64,000 bases of DNA from Arenicellales bacterium. GTDB taxonomy: Bacteria; Pseudomonadota; Gammaproteobacteria; Arenicellales; JAJDZL01. A program made the translations under genes and the position numbers. The notes beneath the pieces are model-generated. The model did not search any database, was not told the DNA's origin, and worked only from the letters and a program-made list of their open reading frames with translations. This document shows, piece by piece, positions 10,315-27,293 of this stretch (position 1 is the first letter of the stretch; each line of letters opens with the position of its first letter). Location: the NCBI GenBank assembly GCA_951813075.1, contig OX638343.1, positions 2,601,999-2,665,998 of the forward strand, in the 5' to 3' direction.

Positions 10315-11370
10315 TCAGTGATATCTCTTGCTATAGTTGGCAACAGCGTTGATCATGACTGACACTTTTTCTGGATCGATATCAGGTTTGATTCCGTGTC
10401 CGAGATTGAAAATGTGTCCGCTGCCGTAACCGAATGATTCCAGGATTCCCGCCACCTGCTGTTCAATTTGATCTTCGCTGAGTCTCAGTGAATCAGGGTC
10501 CAAATTGCCCTGAAGTGCGACCCGATCACCAACTCTTTGACGGGCGTCACCAATATCGACAGTCCAATCAATACCAATCGCACTGCATTTGGTATCAGCG
10601 ATGTTCTCCAACCACTTTCCTCCGCCTTTGGAAAACAGTATTGTTGGAATTTCAGGCACTTGGGCAGACAGTTCCTCTACAATCCGTTGCATGTAACGCA
10701 GCGACAAGTTCAGATATTGAGGGGTATCAAGCAACCCGCCCCAAGTATCGAAAATCATGAGTGCTGAAACGCCAGCTCTGGCTTTGGCTGTGAGATATTC
10801 CGCGACCGACAGGGTGAGAATTTCGAGCAACTGATGCAGATCTTCCGTTCGCGTCTTCGCAAAATTCAGAATCTTTGCAAAGTCAGTCTTGGATCGGCCT
10901 TCGATCATGTAGACTGCAAGTGTCCAGGGACTTCCGGAGAATCCAATCAGTGGAACCGAACCATCGAGACTGTTCACGGTTGTACGAACAGCGTCCATTA
11001 CATAACCAAGATCGTCTTCCGGATCCGGTAGCGCGAGTTTTCGGATGTCGCTACCCGAGGTGATCGGATTTTCGAAAACGGGTCCGACTGATTCCTCCAT
11101 TCTGAGTCCAAGTCCCATCGCATCCGGAATCACCAGGATGTCGGAAAAAATAATTGCGGCATCCAGATCATATCGTCGTAGGGGTTGCAGTGTGACCTCG
11201 CAAGCAAGTTCCGGCGTTCGGCATAGTGTGAGAAAATCGCCAGCTTGCCGACGGGTTTCGCGGTATTCGGGCAGATAACGGCCAGCCTGACGCATGATCC
11301 AAACTGGTGTTCGGTCAATGGCCTGTTTACGAATGGCTCGAATCAATCGATCATTTTTCAGTGATGTCAT
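10315..11370 (-). CDS. hemE: Uroporphyrinogen decarboxylase
   Basis: Removes four carboxyl groups from uroporphyrinogen III to give coproporphyrinogen III, the first step committed to heme rather than siroheme. The protein is 351 residues, normal length. Signature 1, PVWIMRQAGRYLPEYRE, is at about 22-38, and signature 2 is GFSGSPWTLAVYMIEG near 145. The catalytic Asp is in FSDILVIPDAMG and the late His in FNLGHGI. It lies 12 bases downstream of pyrF and in the same direction, so gltB-gltD-pyrF-hemE look like one co-directional run. The remaining heme genes of the window are at 28.3-32.5 kb. Confidence 0.97.
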   Translation of the reverse strand: MTSLKNDRLIRAIRKQAIDRTPVWIMRQAGRYLPEYRETRRQAGDFLTLCRTPELACEVTLQPLRRYDLDAAIIFSDILVIPDAMGLGLRMEESVGPVFENPITSGSDIRKLALPDPEDDLGYVMDAVRTTVNSLDGSVPLIGFSGSPWTLAVYMIEGRSKTDFAKILNFAKTRTEDLHQLLEILTLSVAEYLTAKARAGVSALMIFDTWGGLLDTPQYLNLSLRYMQRIVEELSAQVPEIPTILFSKGGGKWLENIADTKCSAIGIDWTVDIGDARQRVGDRVALQGNLDPDSLRLSEDQIEQQVAGILESFGYGSGHIFNLGHGIKPDIDPEKVSVMINAVANYSKRYH

Positions 11371-18263: not shown

Positions 18264-19964
18264 TCAGGTCATCGAAGACTTTATGATCTGTCTTGCCAGC
18301 TGTTTCGCATCTTCCAAGTTGTCTACGATATGATCGCCCTCTACAAGATTCAGGACATTCAGCGCTACCATGTTTTTGTATATGGATTCCGAGAATCCAC
18401 ACATGATGATGTTGATATTGTCATGAGCTGCAACTTCTGTGAGCCGTTCAATAACCAATGCAATGTCATCTTCGATAAATTGGGTCGTCGAGAAATCGAA
18501 AATTATGACCTCATGGTCTTTGATATCTTCGGTGGTACTATCCACCAGTTTCGTTTTCGACGCGATGGAAATGATCCCGTTCAGACATATCAGGCCTGTG
18601 CGAGTGGAGTACGGGTCAATATCGGTCAACGTTTCATCGTCTTCAAACAGAATCGAGTCAAGTATGGCTGCCGATACAATGCTGTCCATCTCGAATCGTT
18701 CGATAATTCGGGCATTTGTCATTGCGGAGACAATCAAACCGACTACAACCGCGGTAAGCAAATCAATGAAAATCGTTATACCGAATGTAAGCAGTAAGAT
18801 GACGAGTTGGGTGCGCTGTATTAGATGCATACGACGGATGATTCGTATATCTATGGCATCCCAACCCACCTTGATCAAAACACCCGCCAAGGCAGCCAGT
18901 GGAATCTGCTCAAACCAATCAATGAATCCGATCAGGATCAAGGTCATTATGATTGGGTAGGACATTCCGGATACGGTGGTACTTGCGCCCGCGCGGATAT
19001 TTGAAACTGTTCCAGGAACTGAACCGGAGCCGGGCAGGCCTCCTATCAATCCGGAAATCGTATTGCCGATACCCTGACCGATCAGTTCGCGACTCGGTCG
19101 ATGACTGGTTCCAGTGAGTGTATCGGCAACCAGCGAGGACAGAAGACTGTTGACAGAACCGATCAACGCCAGTATCAATGCGGGTTCGAGTGCGTGCAAC
19201 AAGAAGCTGAAACTGGGCGATACAAGCCTTATCTCCGGCAGTCCTGTAAAAATATGTCCCACAATAGGCACGTCAGATAACCATAGAACACTGAGAAGGG
19301 TGCCAACCATCATTGCCAGCAGCGGCGCTGGAATAAATCGTCCAAACTTTCGTGGCCAGAAAATTGAAATTACAAGTGCGATTGCACCGATGGTGAGCGC
19401 GTCGAAATTGATGGAATGCACGCTATCGAATAACTGACGCAAGTTTCCCAGAGCTCCGCCGGATACCGATGACATGCCGAATAGCGGTAGCAATTGGATG
19501 GCGATAATGATTACACCGATTCCTGACATGAATCCGGACACGACAATACGCGGCGTGTATTGAATGTAGCGGCCGACTCCCGTGAGTCCCAGCAAGATCT
19601 GGAGTATACCGGCCATCGAGACGATTAAGAACACCTCAAAAATGTTCTGAGCATGACTGGCCACGATCACCGCAGTGGCGACAACCATCGATGCAGTAGG
19701 TGCTGATATCTGGGTTGATGTTCCACCGAAAATTGCGGCGAAAAATCCGACAGCAATGGCACCGTAGAGCCCCGCGTTGGGTCCCAAACCGGATGCTACA
19801 CCGAACGCGATCGATAATGGGAGTACAACCACCGCGACTGTCAGGCCACCGAACAAATCTCCCTTGAATCGATCAAGACTGTATTCAGGTTGTAATAGTT
19901 GTTTTATCGACATTCCAAACAACAATTGTTCCGATTCTGCAAAGTTGAGAGTTGATTTGTCCAA
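18264..19964 (-). CDS. SulP (SLC26) anion transporter with STAS domain, copy 1
   Basis: Inner-membrane anion transporter or exchanger, 566 residues. About ten to twelve hydrophobic segments lie between 35 and 430. The family signature region is AVVVLPLSIAFGVASGLGPN near 45-65 and the QGIGNTISGLIGGLPGSGSV block near 300. A C-terminal STAS domain (about 440-560) contains VIIFDFSTTQFIEDD and ends in QLARQIIKSSMT. Relatives move sulfate, bicarbonate or dicarboxylates; which is not decidable here. An internal ATG at residue 18 (MSIKQLLQPEYS) is an alternative start that matches copy 2 better. A close paralogue lies at 22178-23827, separated by a PLP decarboxylase. Confidence 0.9.
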   Translation of the reverse strand: MDKSTLNFAESEQLLFGMSIKQLLQPEYSLDRFKGDLFGGLTVAVVVLPLSIAFGVASGLGPNAGLYGAIAVGFFAAIFGGTSTQISAPTASMVVATAVIVASHAQNIFEVFLIVSMAGILQILLGLTGVGRYIQYTPRIVVSGFMSGIGVIIIAIQLLPLFGMSSVSGGALGNLRQLFDSVHSINFDALTIGAIALVISIFWPRKFGRFIPAPLLAMMVGTLLSVLWLSDVPIVGHIFTGLPEIRLVSPSFSFLLHALEPALILALIGSVNSLLSSLVADTLTGTSHRPSRELIGQGIGNTISGLIGGLPGSGSVPGTVSNIRAGASTTVSGMSYPIIMTLILIGFIDWFEQIPLAALAGVLIKVGWDAIDIRIIRRMHLIQRTQLVILLLTFGITIFIDLLTAVVVGLIVSAMTNARIIERFEMDSIVSAAILDSILFEDDETLTDIDPYSTRTGLICLNGIISIASKTKLVDSTTEDIKDHEVIIFDFSTTQFIEDDIALVIERLTEVAAHDNINIIMCGFSESIYKNMVALNVLNLVEGDHIVDNLEDAKQLARQIIKSSMT

Positions 19965-20427: not shown

Positions 20428-21888
20428 TTAGATTGACGCAAGTGCTTCATTTCCATATGTCTCAATAGCATTAATTGTTTCCTCAACATCGTTCCAGGTC
20501 GTATTGTGGTTTATGATGCAGAGTCGGAACGTAAATTTTTTTCGAATGAGGGTTGATGAGATGAATGATTTATCCTCCCAGAACATACGCACCAGCACAA
20601 TTCTGTTTATCTCTTCCAGGGTTTTCTCATCAAGTTCCAAAGCTTCAGGGTTGAATCGAAAGCAAATCACTCCCAGAGTCACCGGGTTCAGTTGCTCCAG
20701 GTCGGATCGTCCTCTGATATGAATTTCTGCACGGTCGGCGAACTCCATTCCTCTCGACACCGCTCGCCGAAATGCAGCCATGCCAAAAGTCTGAACTGAC
20801 GTCCAGATTTTCATCGCGCGCGCTGAACGGCTGAGCTGGATTCCGCGGTTCGCCATGTTCGGATGGTTGCTTCCCCATATGGTGTCTTGAAGTATATCGG
20901 GTTTCATCGAGTGCAGATTTTCAAGGTTGCCGAGATCCTTGACCATCACGCAGCCAACTTCGTACGGTTGATAAAACCATTTGTGCCCGTCAAGCGTTAT
21001 CGAGTCAGCCCGTTCAATTCCGTGCAGAATCGCCTTGCCGCGGTCCGTCACCACCGCGAAACCACCATATGCCGCGTCAACATGAAACCAAATGTTTTGC
21101 GTTTCACAGAAATCCGCCAACTCGGGGAGTTGGTCGACTGCACCGGTCGCAGTTGTACCGGCATTGGCGATGACAATCATCGGGGTGTGTCCGGCCTTTC
21201 GGTCGGCATCGATCGCGCTGGAAAGTGCACCAATATTGAGACGAAAATTGTTGTCGCTCGGAACCAGGCGAATGCATTCCGGTGAAATACCAATGACTCT
21301 GGCCGCGCGAACAAGGACCGCATGACTCTGATCACTCATGTAGACGGTGGCGCGTTGGGGGGATTTCGCGAATTCCCGAGCTGCAACGAAAGCTTCAACA
21401 GTCGCTGCTGAAGTTCCACTGGTCAGTAACCCGCCCGCGGTGTCTGGAAGTCCGAGCCATTGACGAAACCATTCAAGGACAACCAGTTCCACTTCTGTCG
21501 GACCACTTGCAACGAGCCATGTGCAGGTATTGATGTTGAATCCCGCCGCCAGATAGTCTGCCAGAATTCCCGGCCAAGTGGGTGAGGAGGGAATGAAACC
21601 GAAGCAGCGAGGGTGGGCATGGCGCAGTGCATGAGGCAGAATTTCGCTTCCCACTTGTTTGATGACATCCTCTGCGGGTCGACCGGTCTCGGGCGGTGGC
21701 TTCATCAGACTGTTGTCGAGTACATCTCGAAATTCACCATCCCACGAATCTTTGTCGGGCAGGTTTTTGAACCAATCAACCAGAATTCCAGAAGCAACGC
21801 TTGCCAACTCAAGCATGTCGTCGGGATTCATTTGAAGTTCACTTGACTCCCGATCGGCAATATTTGTGGTTTGTTCCTTTTTATTCAT
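20428..21888 (-). CDS. PLP-dependent group II amino acid decarboxylase
   Basis: Aromatic-L-amino-acid/glutamate/diaminobutyrate-type decarboxylase, 486 residues. The PLP lysine is Lys303 in LDGHKWFYQPYEVG. The PLP-stacking His189 is in MSDQSHAVLVRAARVIG and the ring-nitrogen Asp271 in FHVDAAYGGFAVV. Residues near 120-130 (NTCTWLVASGPTEVELVVL) match the substrate and dimer region of the tyrosine/tryptophan/DOPA decarboxylase group, so an aromatic substrate is likelier than glutamate, but this is inference. It is flanked on both sides by paralogous SulP transporters on the same strand. A decarboxylase next to a transporter often makes an antiport pair, though SulP is not a known amine antiporter. 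Confidence 0.87.
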   Translation of the reverse strand: MNKKEQTTNIADRESSELQMNPDDMLELASVASGILVDWFKNLPDKDSWDGEFRDVLDNSLMKPPPETGRPAEDVIKQVGSEILPHALRHAHPRCFGFIPSSPTWPGILADYLAAGFNINTCTWLVASGPTEVELVVLEWFRQWLGLPDTAGGLLTSGTSAATVEAFVAAREFAKSPQRATVYMSDQSHAVLVRAARVIGISPECIRLVPSDNNFRLNIGALSSAIDADRKAGHTPMIVIANAGTTATGAVDQLPELADFCETQNIWFHVDAAYGGFAVVTDRGKAILHGIERADSITLDGHKWFYQPYEVGCVMVKDLGNLENLHSMKPDILQDTIWGSNHPNMANRGIQLSRSARAMKIWTSVQTFGMAAFRRAVSRGMEFADRAEIHIRGRSDLEQLNPVTLGVICFRFNPEALELDEKTLEEINRIVLVRMFWEDKSFISSTLIRKKFTFRLCIINHNTTWNDVEETINAIETYGNEALASI

Positions 21889-22177: not shown

Positions 22178-23827
22178 TCAGGTCATTGAAGACTTGATGA
22201 TCTGTCTTGCCAGCTGTTTCGCATCTTCCAAGGAATCTACGATATGATCGTCCGGCACCAAATTCAGGACATTCAGCGCTATCATGGTTTTGAATATGGA
22301 CTCCGAAAATCCACACATGATGATGCTGATATTGTCATGAGCCGCTACTTCCGTGAGCTGCTCAATAACCAGGGCAATGTCATCGTCGATGAATCGGGTT
22401 GCCGTAAAATCGAAAATAATGACTTCATGGTCTTTGATATCTTCGGCGGTACTGTTCACCAGTTTTGTTTTCGACGCGATAGAAATGATCCCGTTCAGAC
22501 AAATCAGGCCTGTGCGTGTGGAGTATGGGTCAATATCAGTCAACGTTTCATCGTCGTCAAACAGATTCAAATCAAGTATGGCTGCCGATACAATGCTGTC
22601 CAGCTCGAATCGTTCAATTGTCCGTGCATGTGACATTGCTGCCGCGATCAAGCCGAGTGCGACAGCAGCTAACAAATCAACGAAGACAGTCAAGCCGAAA
22701 GTTAGCAAAAGTATGACCATTCTGGGTCGCTGAATCAGATGTATTCGACTGACGATTCTCCAATCAATAATGTCCCAACCCACCTTGATCAAGACTCCTG
22801 ACAAGGCGGCCAGCGGGATTGGTTCCACTACATCGCTGATTCCGAGTAGAATCAGCAGAAGAATGATCGAGTAGGAAATTCCAGATACGGTGGTGGTGGC
22901 GCCAGCGCGGATATTTGCCGCAGTTCCAGGTGGCGAACCAGAACCAGGCAAACCTCCAAAAATTCCTGAAACTATATTTCCGATGCCTTGTCCAATCAGT
23001 TCACGATTTGGTTTGTGACGACTACCCGTGAGCGTATCTGCCATCACCGCTGAGATCAGGCTTTCAACCGATCCGATCATAGCCAGAATAAACGCTGGTT
23101 CAAGCGCTTCCCACAGAAAACTGAATCCCGGTAGTTCTATTTGCACCATCGGCAGACCACTGGGAATCTCTCCAATTACGGGCGCGTCGGAGAGCCAGAA
23201 AATACCGACAAGGGTTGCCACGATCAGCGCCATTAGCGGTGCAGGCAAAAATTTTCTTAGACGTGCGGGCCAGAATATGGCAACTCCAAGTGCAATCGTA
23301 CCGATGATCAAGGCTTGGATATTTGCCGACTTCAATGTTTCTGGCAGCGAGGACAGTGTCCCCATTGCGCCTTCCGAATGTGGCGACGCACCAACCAGCG
23401 GCAGCAGCTGAACGATGATGATGATCACACCGATCCCCGACATAAACCCGGCAACGACAACTCTCGGTACATATTCGATGTATCGACCGATCGCCGACAA
23501 TCCCAGCAATATCTGGAAAAGACCGGCAATCGAAACAATCAGGAACGCCTCGGAAATGTTGTCGGCATGACTGGTGACGATGACTGCGATCGCAACAGCC
23601 ACTGGCGCGCTGGGTCCTGAAATCTGAGTTGACGTGCCTCCGAAGACTGCGGCAAAGAATCCGACAGCAATCGCACCGTAAATGCCCGCGCTGGCTCCCA
23701 GACCGGTTGCGACGCCGAATGCGAGGGATAAAGGGAGTACCACCACTGCGGCAGTCAGAGCGCCAAATATGTCCCCTTTGAATTGAGCAAGGTTATAGCC
23801 GGGTTGCGGCGATATTTTAAATGCCAT
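22178..23827 (-). CDS. SulP (SLC26) anion transporter with STAS domain, copy 2
   Basis: Paralogue of the transporter at 18264-19964, 549 residues with the same plan: SulP core (AVVVLPLSLAFGVATGLGAS; QGIGNIVSGIFGGLPGSGSP) and a C-terminal STAS domain. By eye most positions agree across the two proteins, and the last 140 residues are nearly identical, both ending QLARQIIKSSMT. It lacks the 17-residue N-terminal extension of copy 1. The stop is followed by the start region of the PLP decarboxylase after about 290 bases. A duplication followed by capture of the decarboxylase, or duplication of a two-gene unit with loss, would explain the order. Confidence 0.9.
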   Translation of the reverse strand: MAFKISPQPGYNLAQFKGDIFGALTAAVVVLPLSLAFGVATGLGASAGIYGAIAVGFFAAVFGGTSTQISGPSAPVAVAIAVIVTSHADNISEAFLIVSIAGLFQILLGLSAIGRYIEYVPRVVVAGFMSGIGVIIIIVQLLPLVGASPHSEGAMGTLSSLPETLKSANIQALIIGTIALGVAIFWPARLRKFLPAPLMALIVATLVGIFWLSDAPVIGEIPSGLPMVQIELPGFSFLWEALEPAFILAMIGSVESLISAVMADTLTGSRHKPNRELIGQGIGNIVSGIFGGLPGSGSPPGTAANIRAGATTTVSGISYSIILLLILLGISDVVEPIPLAALSGVLIKVGWDIIDWRIVSRIHLIQRPRMVILLLTFGLTVFVDLLAAVALGLIAAAMSHARTIERFELDSIVSAAILDLNLFDDDETLTDIDPYSTRTGLICLNGIISIASKTKLVNSTAEDIKDHEVIIFDFTATRFIDDDIALVIEQLTEVAAHDNISIIMCGFSESIFKTMIALNVLNLVPDDHIVDSLEDAKQLARQIIKSSMT

Positions 23828-24245
23828 CGGGTCTAAAAATATTTAAGTCATATGTTATTTTGTCCACTCGAAAGTGCGAAAAGAACGGTTGTCATTCCGC
23901 TAGACTGTGGATCACCCAAAACAGTACTGGTTGTTGGGAAAAGTTGTAGGATTCGCAAAACTTTTGTTCGGCGGGTTAACTCGTTACACATTCAATCGTG
24001 CCAATTTTAGTATCTTTTATTCAGCGACAAGTTTGAATCGCCAGCTGCATCCGAAATGACTGGATGCAAAAGCGGAATTCTGAGCAGGTAATGTGCAAAG
24101 CAATCGGCTTGGGAGAGTTGTAAAATTATTGATAAGCAAGCGCATTCTGTGTCTTGTATGGTGATGTACCTTTGCAAAGCGGACAAGACAGGATGCACAA
24201 AAACTCCATCCAGTTTCCACGACACACGGAAGAAGACCGGAACTG
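23828..24245. other. Intergenic stretch without recognisable gene
   Basis: 418 bases between the start of SulP copy 2 (minus) and the restriction-modification stump (plus). It is a divergent promoter region. I saw no conserved protein, RNA gene or repeat in it. Confidence 0.6.
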
Positions 24246-24533
24246 ATGTCACTAAATTGGAATGAAATCCGTTCACGCGCCGCTGAGTTTTCTAGCGAAT
24301 GGCAGGATGCCGCTTACGAAAAAGGCGAGACACAGAGTTTCTACAACGAGTTCCTCCAGATATTCGGCGGTGTCGAGCGGTGCAAATTGGCTCGCTTTGA
24401 GGAGCAGGTGACTCGGCTGGACAACTCGCGCGGCTATATTGATCTTTTCTGGCCGGGAGTGTTGCTGGTTGAACAGAAAAGTGCCGGGCGAGACCTGATG
24501 CAGGCCGCCAGCCAGGCCGGTGTTTTCAGATAG
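24246..24533 (+). pseudogene. N-terminal stump of an MmeI/type IIL restriction-modification protein
   Basis: Only 95 residues remain of a protein family that normally exceeds 900. The visible part is the N-terminal MmeI-type nuclease helper domain: ATG followed by NWNEIRSRAAEFSSEW, then FYNEFLQIFGG and DLFWPGVLLVEQKSAGRDL. The last piece contains the E-x-K of the PD-(D/E)XK nuclease. The frame ends a few codons after AASQAG, exactly where the sulfatase gene begins. No methyltransferase or target-recognition domain follows, so the system cannot be functional. The break is best read as a deletion that joined this gene to the sulfatase region. Confidence 0.75.
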
Positions 24534-24543
24534 ACGAATAGCC

Positions 24544-25974
24544 TTGAAACTTCCGAATATTCTAATCATCTGCTCGGATGAGCATGCGCGCGAATTCAGT
24601 GGCTGTTATGGCCACCCGGTAGCTCATACCCCGACGCTGGACAGACTTTCCCAAACGGGAACAACATTCAATCGTGCCTATACGCCGTCGCCGATCTGCG
24701 TCCCGGCCCGGGCTTGCCTTGCGACTGGCCTTCAGGTACATGAGACGCGTTGCTGGTCATCAGCGGAACCGTATTCCGGACACCCCGAAAGTTGGATGCA
24801 CCGTATGCGGGATCTGGGATATACGGTACTGTCATTCGGAAAACTGCATTTCAGATCGAGTCAGGATGACAATGGATTCACTGAAGAGATTCTGCCCATG
24901 CATGCCACCAACAACGGTTTGGGGTGGCCGCAAGGTTTGTTGCGCAACCCACTCCCTCCTTTTGTTGAAACCTATGAACTTGCACATCAAACGGGCCCCG
25001 GTGAAAGCGACTATACGCAGTACGATCGAGAAATCGCATCAACGGCATGTCAATGGATTGAAAAGTCTTCGTCGCAGACAACCAACAAGCCTTGGATTCT
25101 GTTTGTATCTTTCGTGAGTCCGCACTACCCGCTGACAGCACCCAGCGAGTTCTACGAAATCTACGATGGTTACAAGCCTGATACTGGTTTAGTGTCCGCA
25201 TCTTGCGACACCATCGATCATCCGGTTCTGAAACAAATCCGACAATTCTGGGATTATGACGACTATTTTGACGATGCGCGTCGTGTCGAAGCGCAGAGGT
25301 GCTATTTCGGGTTGGTCAGCTTTCTGGATGAAAACATCAGACGAGTACTGGAATCTGTCGAAATTGCGGGGTCACTCAATGACACGATCACGCTGTATAC
25401 CTCCGATCATGGGGAAATGCTGGGGCATCTGGGTTTCTGGACGAAATCGGTAATGTTCGAAAAATCCGCTGGTATTCCACTGATAGCGTGTGGTCCGGGA
25501 TTCGACCGGGTTCGTTGCGAGACTCCGGTCTCCTTGACTGACATCGCGGCGACAGTCGAACATGCTTCGGGTATTGAGTCGACCATCAGCGAACCCTTCA
25601 GATCTCAGGCGTTGCAGGTTGTCAGCAGACAACACAACCGCAATAGGGTAATCTTGTCGCAGTATCATGACGGCGGAACTCCCGAAAGTTTTTTCATGAT
25701 TCGATATCGACAATGGAAATACGTCTACTACGCCGGAGGCTACCGACCACAATTATTCAATCTCGACGAAGACCCGATGGAGTTGAACGATCTGGGAACC
25801 GAGGATCGTTTTCAAACCACCACACAGCAACTTCATCGAAAGCTCTTGCAAATCCTTGATCCAGACGATGTTGCAAGACAATGTGAAATAGATCAACAAG
25901 CTAGAATTGATGAGCTGGGTGGTCGGGAAGCCGTCTTGGCCATGTCAAGCTTCAACCATACTCCGGTGCACTGA
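24544..25974 (+). CDS. Formylglycine-type sulfatase
   Basis: A type I sulfatase of about 476 residues from TTG 24544; a GTG at 24520 inside the upstream stump is an alternative. The formylglycine motif CVPARACLATG has its Cys at residue 52 (Cys type, so it needs a formylglycine-generating enzyme). Metal ligands are in ICSDEHARE near the start and TSDHGEMLGHLGFW near 295, with FGKLHF in between. No signal peptide is visible, suggesting a cytoplasmic enzyme like choline sulfatase, but the C-terminus does not clearly match that group. Nearby SulP transporters would fit sulfate-ester use. The start overlaps the end of the restriction-modification stump, so it may use that gene's promoter. Confidence 0.85.
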   Translation: MKLPNILIICSDEHAREFSGCYGHPVAHTPTLDRLSQTGTTFNRAYTPSPICVPARACLATGLQVHETRCWSSAEPYSGHPESWMHRMRDLGYTVLSFGKLHFRSSQDDNGFTEEILPMHATNNGLGWPQGLLRNPLPPFVETYELAHQTGPGESDYTQYDREIASTACQWIEKSSSQTTNKPWILFVSFVSPHYPLTAPSEFYEIYDGYKPDTGLVSASCDTIDHPVLKQIRQFWDYDDYFDDARRVEAQRCYFGLVSFLDENIRRVLESVEIAGSLNDTITLYTSDHGEMLGHLGFWTKSVMFEKSAGIPLIACGPGFDRVRCETPVSLTDIAATVEHASGIESTISEPFRSQALQVVSRQHNRNRVILSQYHDGGTPESFFMIRYRQWKYVYYAGGYRPQLFNLDEDPMELNDLGTEDRFQTTTQQLHRKLLQILDPDDVARQCEIDQQARIDELGGREAVLAMSSFNHTPVH

Positions 25975-26090
25975 TCAGTTACATTGACTTACGACTACCA
26001 GGGGTGTAAAGATCGCACTCAAAATCATCTGCAGTTCAAAATGTTCTGTGTTTTCAACAATATAATGCCGACCAGAATATTCATGTTGAT

Positions 26091-27293
26091 GTGAAAATGC
26101 ATTTTGCGACTCCCGACCCGGCAGCGGAATTGGAAATGTCCGCTTATGAACACAATCGTTCGCGAACGCTCTGTGCATTGATCCTGGCACAGATCAGAAG
26201 TTCTGACCACAAAGCAATACCGTTTTCAAGTTACATGAACCTTGCCTTGTATGCGCCGGAATACGGTTACTATACATCCGCAGGAAAAATCATTGGCGCC
26301 GGAGGTGACTTCATTACCGCACCGGAAATGGGAGACATGTTCGGAAATTTACTTGCTACCAAGATTGCTGACAGTTGCGCGCAGTTCGAGCGTCCACCGA
26401 CTCTGTACGAGTTCGGTGCTGGCAATGGGACGCTAGCAGTGCAGATCTTGAAAGAATTGAATCGCCGAAGTGTCGAAATCAATAATTATGAAATCATTGA
26501 AGTCAGTCCGATGCTCAAGGGATTTCAGCAATCTACCATCAGTCGAACGGAGCATCAGATCAGTCAAAAGTTCAAGTGGCGGACAAATCTTCCGGAATCA
26601 GGAATTGAGGGCATTGTGATCGCCAACGAGGTTGTTGACGCAATGCCAGTGGAACTATTTTGCAAGACACAAGGCCAGTTCGGACAGGGATTTGTCGTGG
26701 AAGCTGATAGCGGGTTCGGGTTGGAATACCGTTCATCAGTCCGGCCAGACTTTCGAAAGTCACTCAGCGCGCTGAATCTACAGGATGTCGATGACGGATA
26801 TTACTCAGAGCTTCACTGTCAGGGTGAATCGTGGCTGCGCACTTTGGCGGAAATGATGAATTCAGGTTCGATTCTGATTGCTGATTACGGTTTTCCTGAA
26901 CGCGAGTACTACCATCACGACAGAAATCAGGGAACTTTGGTTTGCCATCGACGTCACAGACTTCTATACGATCCGTTTTCTTATGTCGGGTGTCAGGATA
27001 TCACAGCACACGTCAACTTCTCGGGGTTGGCACGAGCGGCGGCTGAGTCAGGTATGGAGGTCAATGGATTTACCAATCTAGGCAACTTTGTTGTCGATAT
27101 CGGAATGATTGGCGGGATACTTGATAAAGTAGCAGAAGAGTCCGTTCATTATGCGACTCAGCTCGACAAGTTGAGCAGTCCCAACGAAATGGGCGAAATT
27201 TTCAAGGTGATGGAATTAACAAAAAATTTCGATTCAAGTGGACTAGGGTTCAATCTATCGGATCGAACACATCGTCTCGGCGTAGTGGACTGA
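26091..27293 (+). CDS. MidA/NDUFAF7-family SAM-dependent methyltransferase
   Basis: A 400-residue protein of the MidA family (PF02636, formerly DUF185). The mitochondrial member NDUFAF7 methylates an arginine of a complex I subunit; bacterial targets are unknown. Markers are MNLALYAPEYGYYTSAGKI, GDFITAPEMGDMFGNLLA near 85, the SAM loop YEFGAGNGTLAVQIL near 105, and IVIANEVVDAMPVE near 180. The frame opens with GTG 26091; ATG 26097 two codons on is equally likely. It stands alone between the sulfatase and uppP, both on the same strand. Confidence 0.9.
   Translation: MKMHFATPDPAAELEMSAYEHNRSRTLCALILAQIRSSDHKAIPFSSYMNLALYAPEYGYYTSAGKIIGAGGDFITAPEMGDMFGNLLATKIADSCAQFERPPTLYEFGAGNGTLAVQILKELNRRSVEINNYEIIEVSPMLKGFQQSTISRTEHQISQKFKWRTNLPESGIEGIVIANEVVDAMPVELFCKTQGQFGQGFVVEADSGFGLEYRSSVRPDFRKSLSALNLQDVDDGYYSELHCQGESWLRTLAEMMNSGSILIADYGFPEREYYHHDRNQGTLVCHRRHRLLYDPFSYVGCQDITAHVNFSGLARAAAESGMEVNGFTNLGNFVVDIGMIGGILDKVAEESVHYATQLDKLSSPNEMGEIFKVMELTKNFDSSGLGFNLSDRTHRLGVVD

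What the first reader, a model, noticed from the sequence alone, without database searches (positions are those of the whole stretch)
24246..24560. MmeI-type restriction gene stump running directly into a sulfatase gene
The stump stops a few codons after the nuclease E-x-K motif, and the sulfatase's possible start codons are inside or just after it. This implies a deletion junction, leaving the sulfatase under the promoter of a former restriction-modification gene. The stump could be translated and might couple to the sulfatase start.
Basis: partly seen in the sequence, partly recalled or inferred. Interest (0 to 1): 0.5.

Follow-up and report, generated by a model that had tools for sequence, protein, structure and literature searches.

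The report
Reciprocal loss in restriction–sulfatase gene pair
The stump is the start of a restriction enzyme gene whose middle was cut out, in reading frame, just before a sulfatase gene that already sat there; a sister species kept the restriction gene and lost the sulfatase instead, so this is ordinary gene decay caught unusually clearly.

Summary
24246-24533 encodes 95 aa: 92 codons of an MmeI-type (Type IIL) restriction-modification gene, ending 17 codons after the nuclease E-x-K, and a sulfatase follows. A sister species (G001, same genus) settles how it arose. Between the same flanking genes G001 has a full-length mmeI (929 aa, all five MmeI Pfam domains). Directly behind its stop codon lie about 155 bases of decayed sulfatase start, collinear with the window (0 of 1000 shuffles reach the score). 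The common ancestor therefore carried mmeI followed about 10 bases later by the sulfatase. The window lineage lost about 2.5 kb of mmeI in frame; the stump's stop codon aligns with the original mmeI stop. G001 lost most of the sulfatase. The stump is as conserved as intact N-termini, so the deletion is recent relative to the species split, or the stump is still constrained. Translation or coupling of the stump is possible but untested; Shine-Dalgarno signals here are uninformative. No relative searched shows a conserved stand-alone short gene. Ordinary gene loss, unusually well documented.

The parts
22178..23827 (-). Left flank: SulP-type transporter gene, kept in the same place and orientation in G001 (74% identity)
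24087..24146 (.). Conserved non-coding block (78% identical to G001 over 60 bases), 100-160 bases upstream of the mmeI start; candidate promoter or operator, function not shown
   Evidence: its 27-base core occurs once in G000 and once in G001 with up to 3 mismatches; no sigma-70-like match on this strand
24246..24533 (+). mmeI stump: first 92 codons of mmeI plus the last codons (V-F-R) and a stop that aligns with the native mmeI stop
24441..24479 (+). Codons of the nuclease catalytic residues D66 ... E76-Q77-K78, retained
   Evidence: MmeI residues from PMC4833311
24519..24522 (+). Deletion junction: GGT of the N-terminal part joined to GTT of the mmeI end; about 2505 bases missing relative to G001 (L066 10939-13443), in frame; at most 2 bases (TG) shared at the breakpoint as judged from G001
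24520..24522 (+). GTG, upstream start candidate of the sulfatase; spans the junction (G001 reads CTG at the aligned place)
24544..24546 (+). TTG, downstream start candidate of the sulfatase; conserved as TTG in the G001 remnant
24544..25974 (+). Sulfatase gene (open frame from GTG 24520)
   Evidence: PF00884 E 1.3e-40; choline-sulfatase model TIGR03417 250 bits, below its 433-bit cut-off
24697..24711 (+). C-V-P-A-R, sulfatase active-site C/S-x-P-x-R motif (motif recalled), intact
   Evidence: FGE-family genes elsewhere in the genome
26038..26040 (+). Point where the G001 sequence rejoins the window after its own loss of the sulfatase body
26091..27293 (+). Right flank: SAM-dependent methyltransferase gene (PF02636), kept in place in G001 (71% identity)

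Best explanation
The common ancestor of this species and its sister G001 had an mmeI-type restriction-modification gene directly followed (stop to start about 10 bases) by a sulfatase gene. In the window's lineage an internal, in-frame deletion of about 2.5 kb removed everything in mmeI between codon 92 and the last three codons. This destroyed the end of the nuclease domain and all of the spacer, methyltransferase, target-recognition and C-terminal domains, and left the sulfatase whole at its original distance from the mmeI stop codon. In G001 the reverse happened: mmeI stayed whole and the sulfatase decayed to about 155 bases. Shown by sequence: synteny, the intact gene, the collinear remnant, the in-frame junction. 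Inferred: that the window deletion is recent, that the stump has no restriction activity (it lacks the rest of the nuclease domain and all DNA recognition), and that the sulfatase is still transcribed from the old mmeI promoter, as it probably was before.
For: G001 has SulP (-), mmeI (929 aa, no stops) and the PF02636 methyltransferase gene (+) in the window's order. That MmeI has all five MmeI Pfam domains. The bases after its stop align with the sulfatase start: without a gap from TGTTTTC through the stop and past the TTG, then with window 24658-24766, then rejoin at 26038. Chain score 78.6 against 45.8 +/- 4.9 in shuffles, 0 of 1000 reaching it; second piece alone 0 of 1000. Controls with other sequence scored 42.8 to 57.6. 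G001 has no sulfatase orthologue: its best match is 30% identical, against 57-65% in the other four genus members held. The window's genome has no other mmeI sequence at E <= 1 (query MmeI residues 113-929), while the same query finds the gene in G001 and G004. The stump's divergence from G001 (dN 0.153, dS 1.31) is like that of seven neighbouring genes (dN 0.057-0.236). Excess dN on the window side against five outgroups is 0.010 (95% -0.047 to 0.074).
Against: No genome held has both genes intact side by side: the ancestral pair is inferred from two complementary remnants. The stricter short-gap score of the remnant was unimpressive (28, reached by 9 of 500 shuffles); the case rests on the chained, collinear match and its position. 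The C-terminal tail of MmeI is not conserved in more distant relatives, so assigning the last three codons of the stump to the mmeI end rests on G001 alone.
Confidence: 0.9

Rival explanations
1. Promoter capture: the deletion or a replacement brought the sulfatase in from elsewhere and placed it under the promoter of the former restriction gene.
For: Sister G001 lacks a sulfatase gene at the locus, and three of the other genus members have it beside ABC transporter genes instead, so the gene did move at some time.
Against: Decayed sulfatase start lies directly behind the intact mmeI stop in G001, so the placement predates the deletion.
Confidence: 0.04
2. The stump is kept as a translated leader: ribosomes ending at its stop re-start at the TTG 10 bases on, or at the GTG that the junction created, so the stump is under selection for sulfatase expression.
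For: In-frame junction; stop-to-start spacing as in G001; no detectable excess of amino-acid change in the stump; no ribosome-binding signal before the TTG.
Against: Low excess is equally expected if the deletion is recent. In-frame is a one-in-three chance. Another frame would have given a fusion with the sulfatase, and the third a stop just before the TTG (read). Only 9 of 33 window genes show a clear ribosome-binding signal against 19% of random sites, so its absence says little.
Confidence: 0.12
3. The short protein has its own function, as a free nuclease fragment or an inhibitor of related enzymes.
For: The catalytic D and E-x-K residues are intact; two other N-terminal stumps exist in G003.
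Against: It lacks about a third of the 1-155 nuclease domain given in PMC4833311. The G003 stumps end at different places and one has stops and frame changes beside transposase-like sequence. No other MmeI was found in the window's genome for it to inhibit.
Confidence: 0.03
4. Assembly artefact joining two places.
For: No reads were available.
Against: Single-contig genome, the same flanks as G001, and the collinear remnant in G001 that joins mmeI to the sulfatase independently.
Confidence: 0.02

Closest known systems
MmeI, Type IIL restriction-modification enzyme (PDB 5hr4; PMC4833311)
   Same: The stump aligns over its whole kept part (1-91 on 1-95), with the D...E-x-K catalytic residues in place; the G001 orthologue has all five domains.
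   Different: Only 92 of about 929 codons remain; spacer, methyltransferase, target recognition and C-terminal domains are gone.
S1-type (formylglycine) sulfatases, nearest solved by sequence: choline sulfatases 6fny, 6g5z, 7pth
   Same: Sulfatase family by profile; C-x-P-x-R motif intact.
   Different: Below the curated choline-sulfatase cut-off (250 against 433 bits); substrate unknown.
Bacterial gene decay by internal deletion, differential loss between sister species (general knowledge)
   Same: A dispensable defence gene removed by one deletion, with neighbours intact.
   Different: Here both genes of one adjacent pair were lost reciprocally in two sister species, so each preserves the evidence of the other.

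Membership tests
MmeI-type (Type IIL) restriction-modification enzymes, intact member | N-terminal PD-(D/E)XK nuclease residues | tested here: met
   D66, E76, K78 present
MmeI-type (Type IIL) restriction-modification enzymes, intact member | Complete nuclease domain (about 155 residues) | tested here: not met
   95 aa; profile covered to 81 of 181
MmeI-type (Type IIL) restriction-modification enzymes, intact member | Spacer, methyltransferase, target recognition and C-terminal domains | tested here: not met
   None in the stump; no match to these parts in the window's genome at E <= 1. All present in G001
S1 sulfatase | Sulfatase domain with C/S-x-P-x-R motif | tested here: met
   PF00884 E 1.3e-40; C-V-P-A-R at 24697-24711 (motif recalled)
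S1 sulfatase | Formylglycine-generating enzyme in the genome | tested here: met
   PF03781 family matches over cut-off, best 171.5 bits; that they act on this protein is not tested
Choline sulfatase | Score above the curated TIGR03417 cut-off | tested here: not met
   250 bits against 433.45
   9 of 60 genomes searched (window's own included) have a match; five have 921-969 aa frames, G003 has two stumps of other lengths, G052 and G032 are partial
Translationally coupled leader | Sulfatase expression depends on stump translation | not testable with these tools
   Needs a reporter or mutant

The most novel reading that the evidence does not exclude
A restriction gene was trimmed in frame down to a 95-codon translated leader. 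Its unchanged stop codon, together with a GTG start made by the junction itself, now drives the sulfatase, so selection on the neighbour keeps the stump in good condition.
Probability: 0.1. Interest if true: 0.45.

Novelty: new member of a known kind. Interest (0 to 1): 0.27.

Why it matters
It is a clean example of how a one-gene restriction system is discarded: one in-frame cut that removes methylation and recognition together, so no unprotected nuclease is likely to be left, while the downstream gene keeps its place. The sister species shows the opposite loss, which dates the gene order and corrects the tempting story that the deletion gave the sulfatase a new promoter. It matters mainly as a caution: a stump-plus-gene junction should not be read as promoter capture without a relative for comparison.

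Tried and rejected
Promoter capture was rejected by the G001 remnant. A repeat-mediated deletion was looked for: the two breakpoint surroundings in G001 share nothing beyond chance (score 9; 55% of 500 random mmeI windows reach it), with at most two shared bases at the cut. Ribosome-binding strength as evidence for coupling was uninformative: 9 of 33 window genes at or below -4 kcal/mol against 19% of 1000 random sites. No sigma-70-like promoter was found on the mmeI strand in the window's upstream region or in G001's.

The sulfatase tree puts the five genus copies in one clade (100/99), window with G003 (98/94) (28 rows, of the 42 sulfatase loci fetched I chose 27 plus the window). In G004 the gene adjoins ABC transporter genes by Pfam; the frames beside it in G005 and G002 look alike in size and order, and one of the transporter genes was found next to the sulfatase in G005 on the same contig. 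In G002 the best copy of that transporter gene is on another contig, but a fragment with the transporter-like frame abuts the sulfatase at the contig end. That transporter is far away in the window's genome and in G003, so the gene moved at some time; how was not resolved.

Literature: four searches. Only passages of PMC4833311 were read; the rest were seen as search listings. None of the listed titles or abstract starts described an mmeI-sulfatase pair; this is not a claim that none exists.

Errors of mine: the G022 row was read on the wrong strand, so its figures are void, and one search replaces it. In one search the pairwise G001-outgroup rows included 8 or so codons past the junction; the bootstrap used only columns with a window residue. 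In one search the left breakpoint was set one codon late (2502 bases), because the window has one extra codon; the correct figure,'s match end at 10938, is 2505, worked by hand. One search assigned genes from stop-to-stop frames, not from annotation.

Full report
What is there. The ORF 24246-24533 (+) encodes 95 residues. It matches Pfam MmeI_N (E 7e-17) and MmeI in PDB 5hr4 (E 6.5e-21, residues 1-91 on 1-95). PMC4833311 (passages read) gives the MmeI nuclease domain as residues 1-155 and the catalytic residues as D70, E80 and K82; the stump has D66, E76 and K78 in the aligned places. It stops 17 codons after K78. A sulfatase gene follows at once (PF00884, E 1.3e-40), with start candidates GTG 24520, inside the stump, and TTG 24544, ten bases after its stop.

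The sister locus. The window lies in a single-contig genome of 3.14 Mb (G000). G001, of the same genus, has the same flanks: the SulP transporter gene on the left (74% identity) and the PF02636 methyltransferase gene on the right (71%). Between them it has a full mmeI of 929 codons with all five MmeI Pfam domains. So the window gene was once whole.

The remnant that changes the story. After the mmeI stop in G001 there are about 160 bases before the sequence rejoins the window at 26038. They align with the start of the window's sulfatase: first without a gap from the last mmeI codons through the stop and past the TTG start, then, after a loss of several tens of bases, with window 24658-24766. 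Aligned-base identities are 38 of 52 and 70 of 108. The chained score is 78.6, against a mean of 45.8 (sd 4.9) and a maximum of 66.1 in 1000 shuffles; the second piece alone also exceeds all 1000; the controls (reverse complement and three other window genes) scored 42.8 to 57.6. A stricter short-gap score was weak (28; 9 of 500 shuffles reach it), so the case rests on collinearity and position. G001 has no sulfatase orthologue: its best match is 30% identical, against 57-65% in G002, G003, G004 and G005.

Reading. The ancestor of the two species had mmeI immediately followed by the sulfatase. The window lineage cut out mmeI from codon 93 to just before the last three codons, about 2505 bases on the G001 scale, in frame, leaving the sulfatase whole. 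G001 kept mmeI and lost the sulfatase. The window's stump ends at a stop that aligns with the native mmeI stop. No further mmeI sequence was found in the window's genome at E <= 1, while the same query finds the gene in G001 and G004.

Age and constraint. Stump against G001: dN 0.153, dS 1.31. Seven neighbouring genes compared with G001 (SulP_B, MT28, uppP, hemC, hemD, hemX, gltB) have dN 0.057-0.236 and dS 0.82-1.63; the eighth, the extra SulP copy, has no counterpart of its own in the G001 stretch and was left out of this range (gene names beyond the Pfam hits are my reading). Excess dN on the window side against five outgroups is 0.010 (bootstrap 95% -0.047 to 0.074). With a branch of roughly half of 1.31 synonymous changes per site, free drift for more than about a tenth of the branch would probably show (my estimate). 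So the deletion is recent relative to the split, or the stump is still constrained; the data cannot tell these apart.

Expression. A 60-base block 100-160 bases upstream of the start is conserved in both species, and its core is unique in each genome, so the regulatory region may be kept. It has no sigma-70-like match on that strand. Coupling of stump and sulfatase translation is possible from the spacing, but ribosome-binding signals are weak throughout the window (9 of 33 genes against 19% of random sites). The GTG start candidate exists only at the junction; G001 reads CTG there.

Wider view. In the 60 genomes searched (the window's own included), 9 have an MmeI N-terminus match, 10 matches in all: five long frames of 921-969 aa (G001, G004, G022, G027, G040), three N-terminal stumps (the window's and two in G003) and two partial ones (G052, which runs off its contig, and G032, without the first 61 residues). 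The G003 stumps end near residue 163 and residue 190, the second decayed and beside transposase-like sequence (that label is my reading). They are not a conserved stand-alone gene. The sulfatase is old in the genus: five genus copies form one clade (100/99). It sits beside ABC transporter genes in G004, with a matching arrangement in G005 and, as far as its contig goes, G002, and within about 0.8 kb of McrBC genes in G003.

Verdict. The deletion is real and well supported; promoter capture is not. This is ordinary, reciprocal gene loss with a possible but unproven coupling role for the stump.

Noticed in passing
18264-19964 (-) and 22178-23827 (-): Two SulP/BicA-like transporter genes flank a PLP-dependent decarboxylase gene (20428-21888); only one SulP lies at the G001 locus. 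Their last ~150 codons are 87-90% identical in DNA against 58-75% before, which suggests gene conversion.
   Followed up: partly
24087-24146: Isolated 60-base conserved non-coding block between the divergent SulP and mmeI genes; core unique in the genome.
   Followed up: partly
L068 4453-4944 and L069 4701-5266 (G003): Two more mmeI N-terminal stumps in one relative, one decayed and beside transposase-like sequence.
   Followed up: partly
L070 6130-11914 (G003): The closest sulfatase relative (65%) lies about 0.8 kb behind McrBC restriction genes on the same strand, so the sulfatase is next to a restriction gene in two lineages.
   Followed up: no
L075 7562-16715 (G022): An intact mmeI lies a few genes from a hemC-like gene in a different family; the window's stump is also near hemC. 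Possibly a shared insertion neighbourhood.
   Followed up: no
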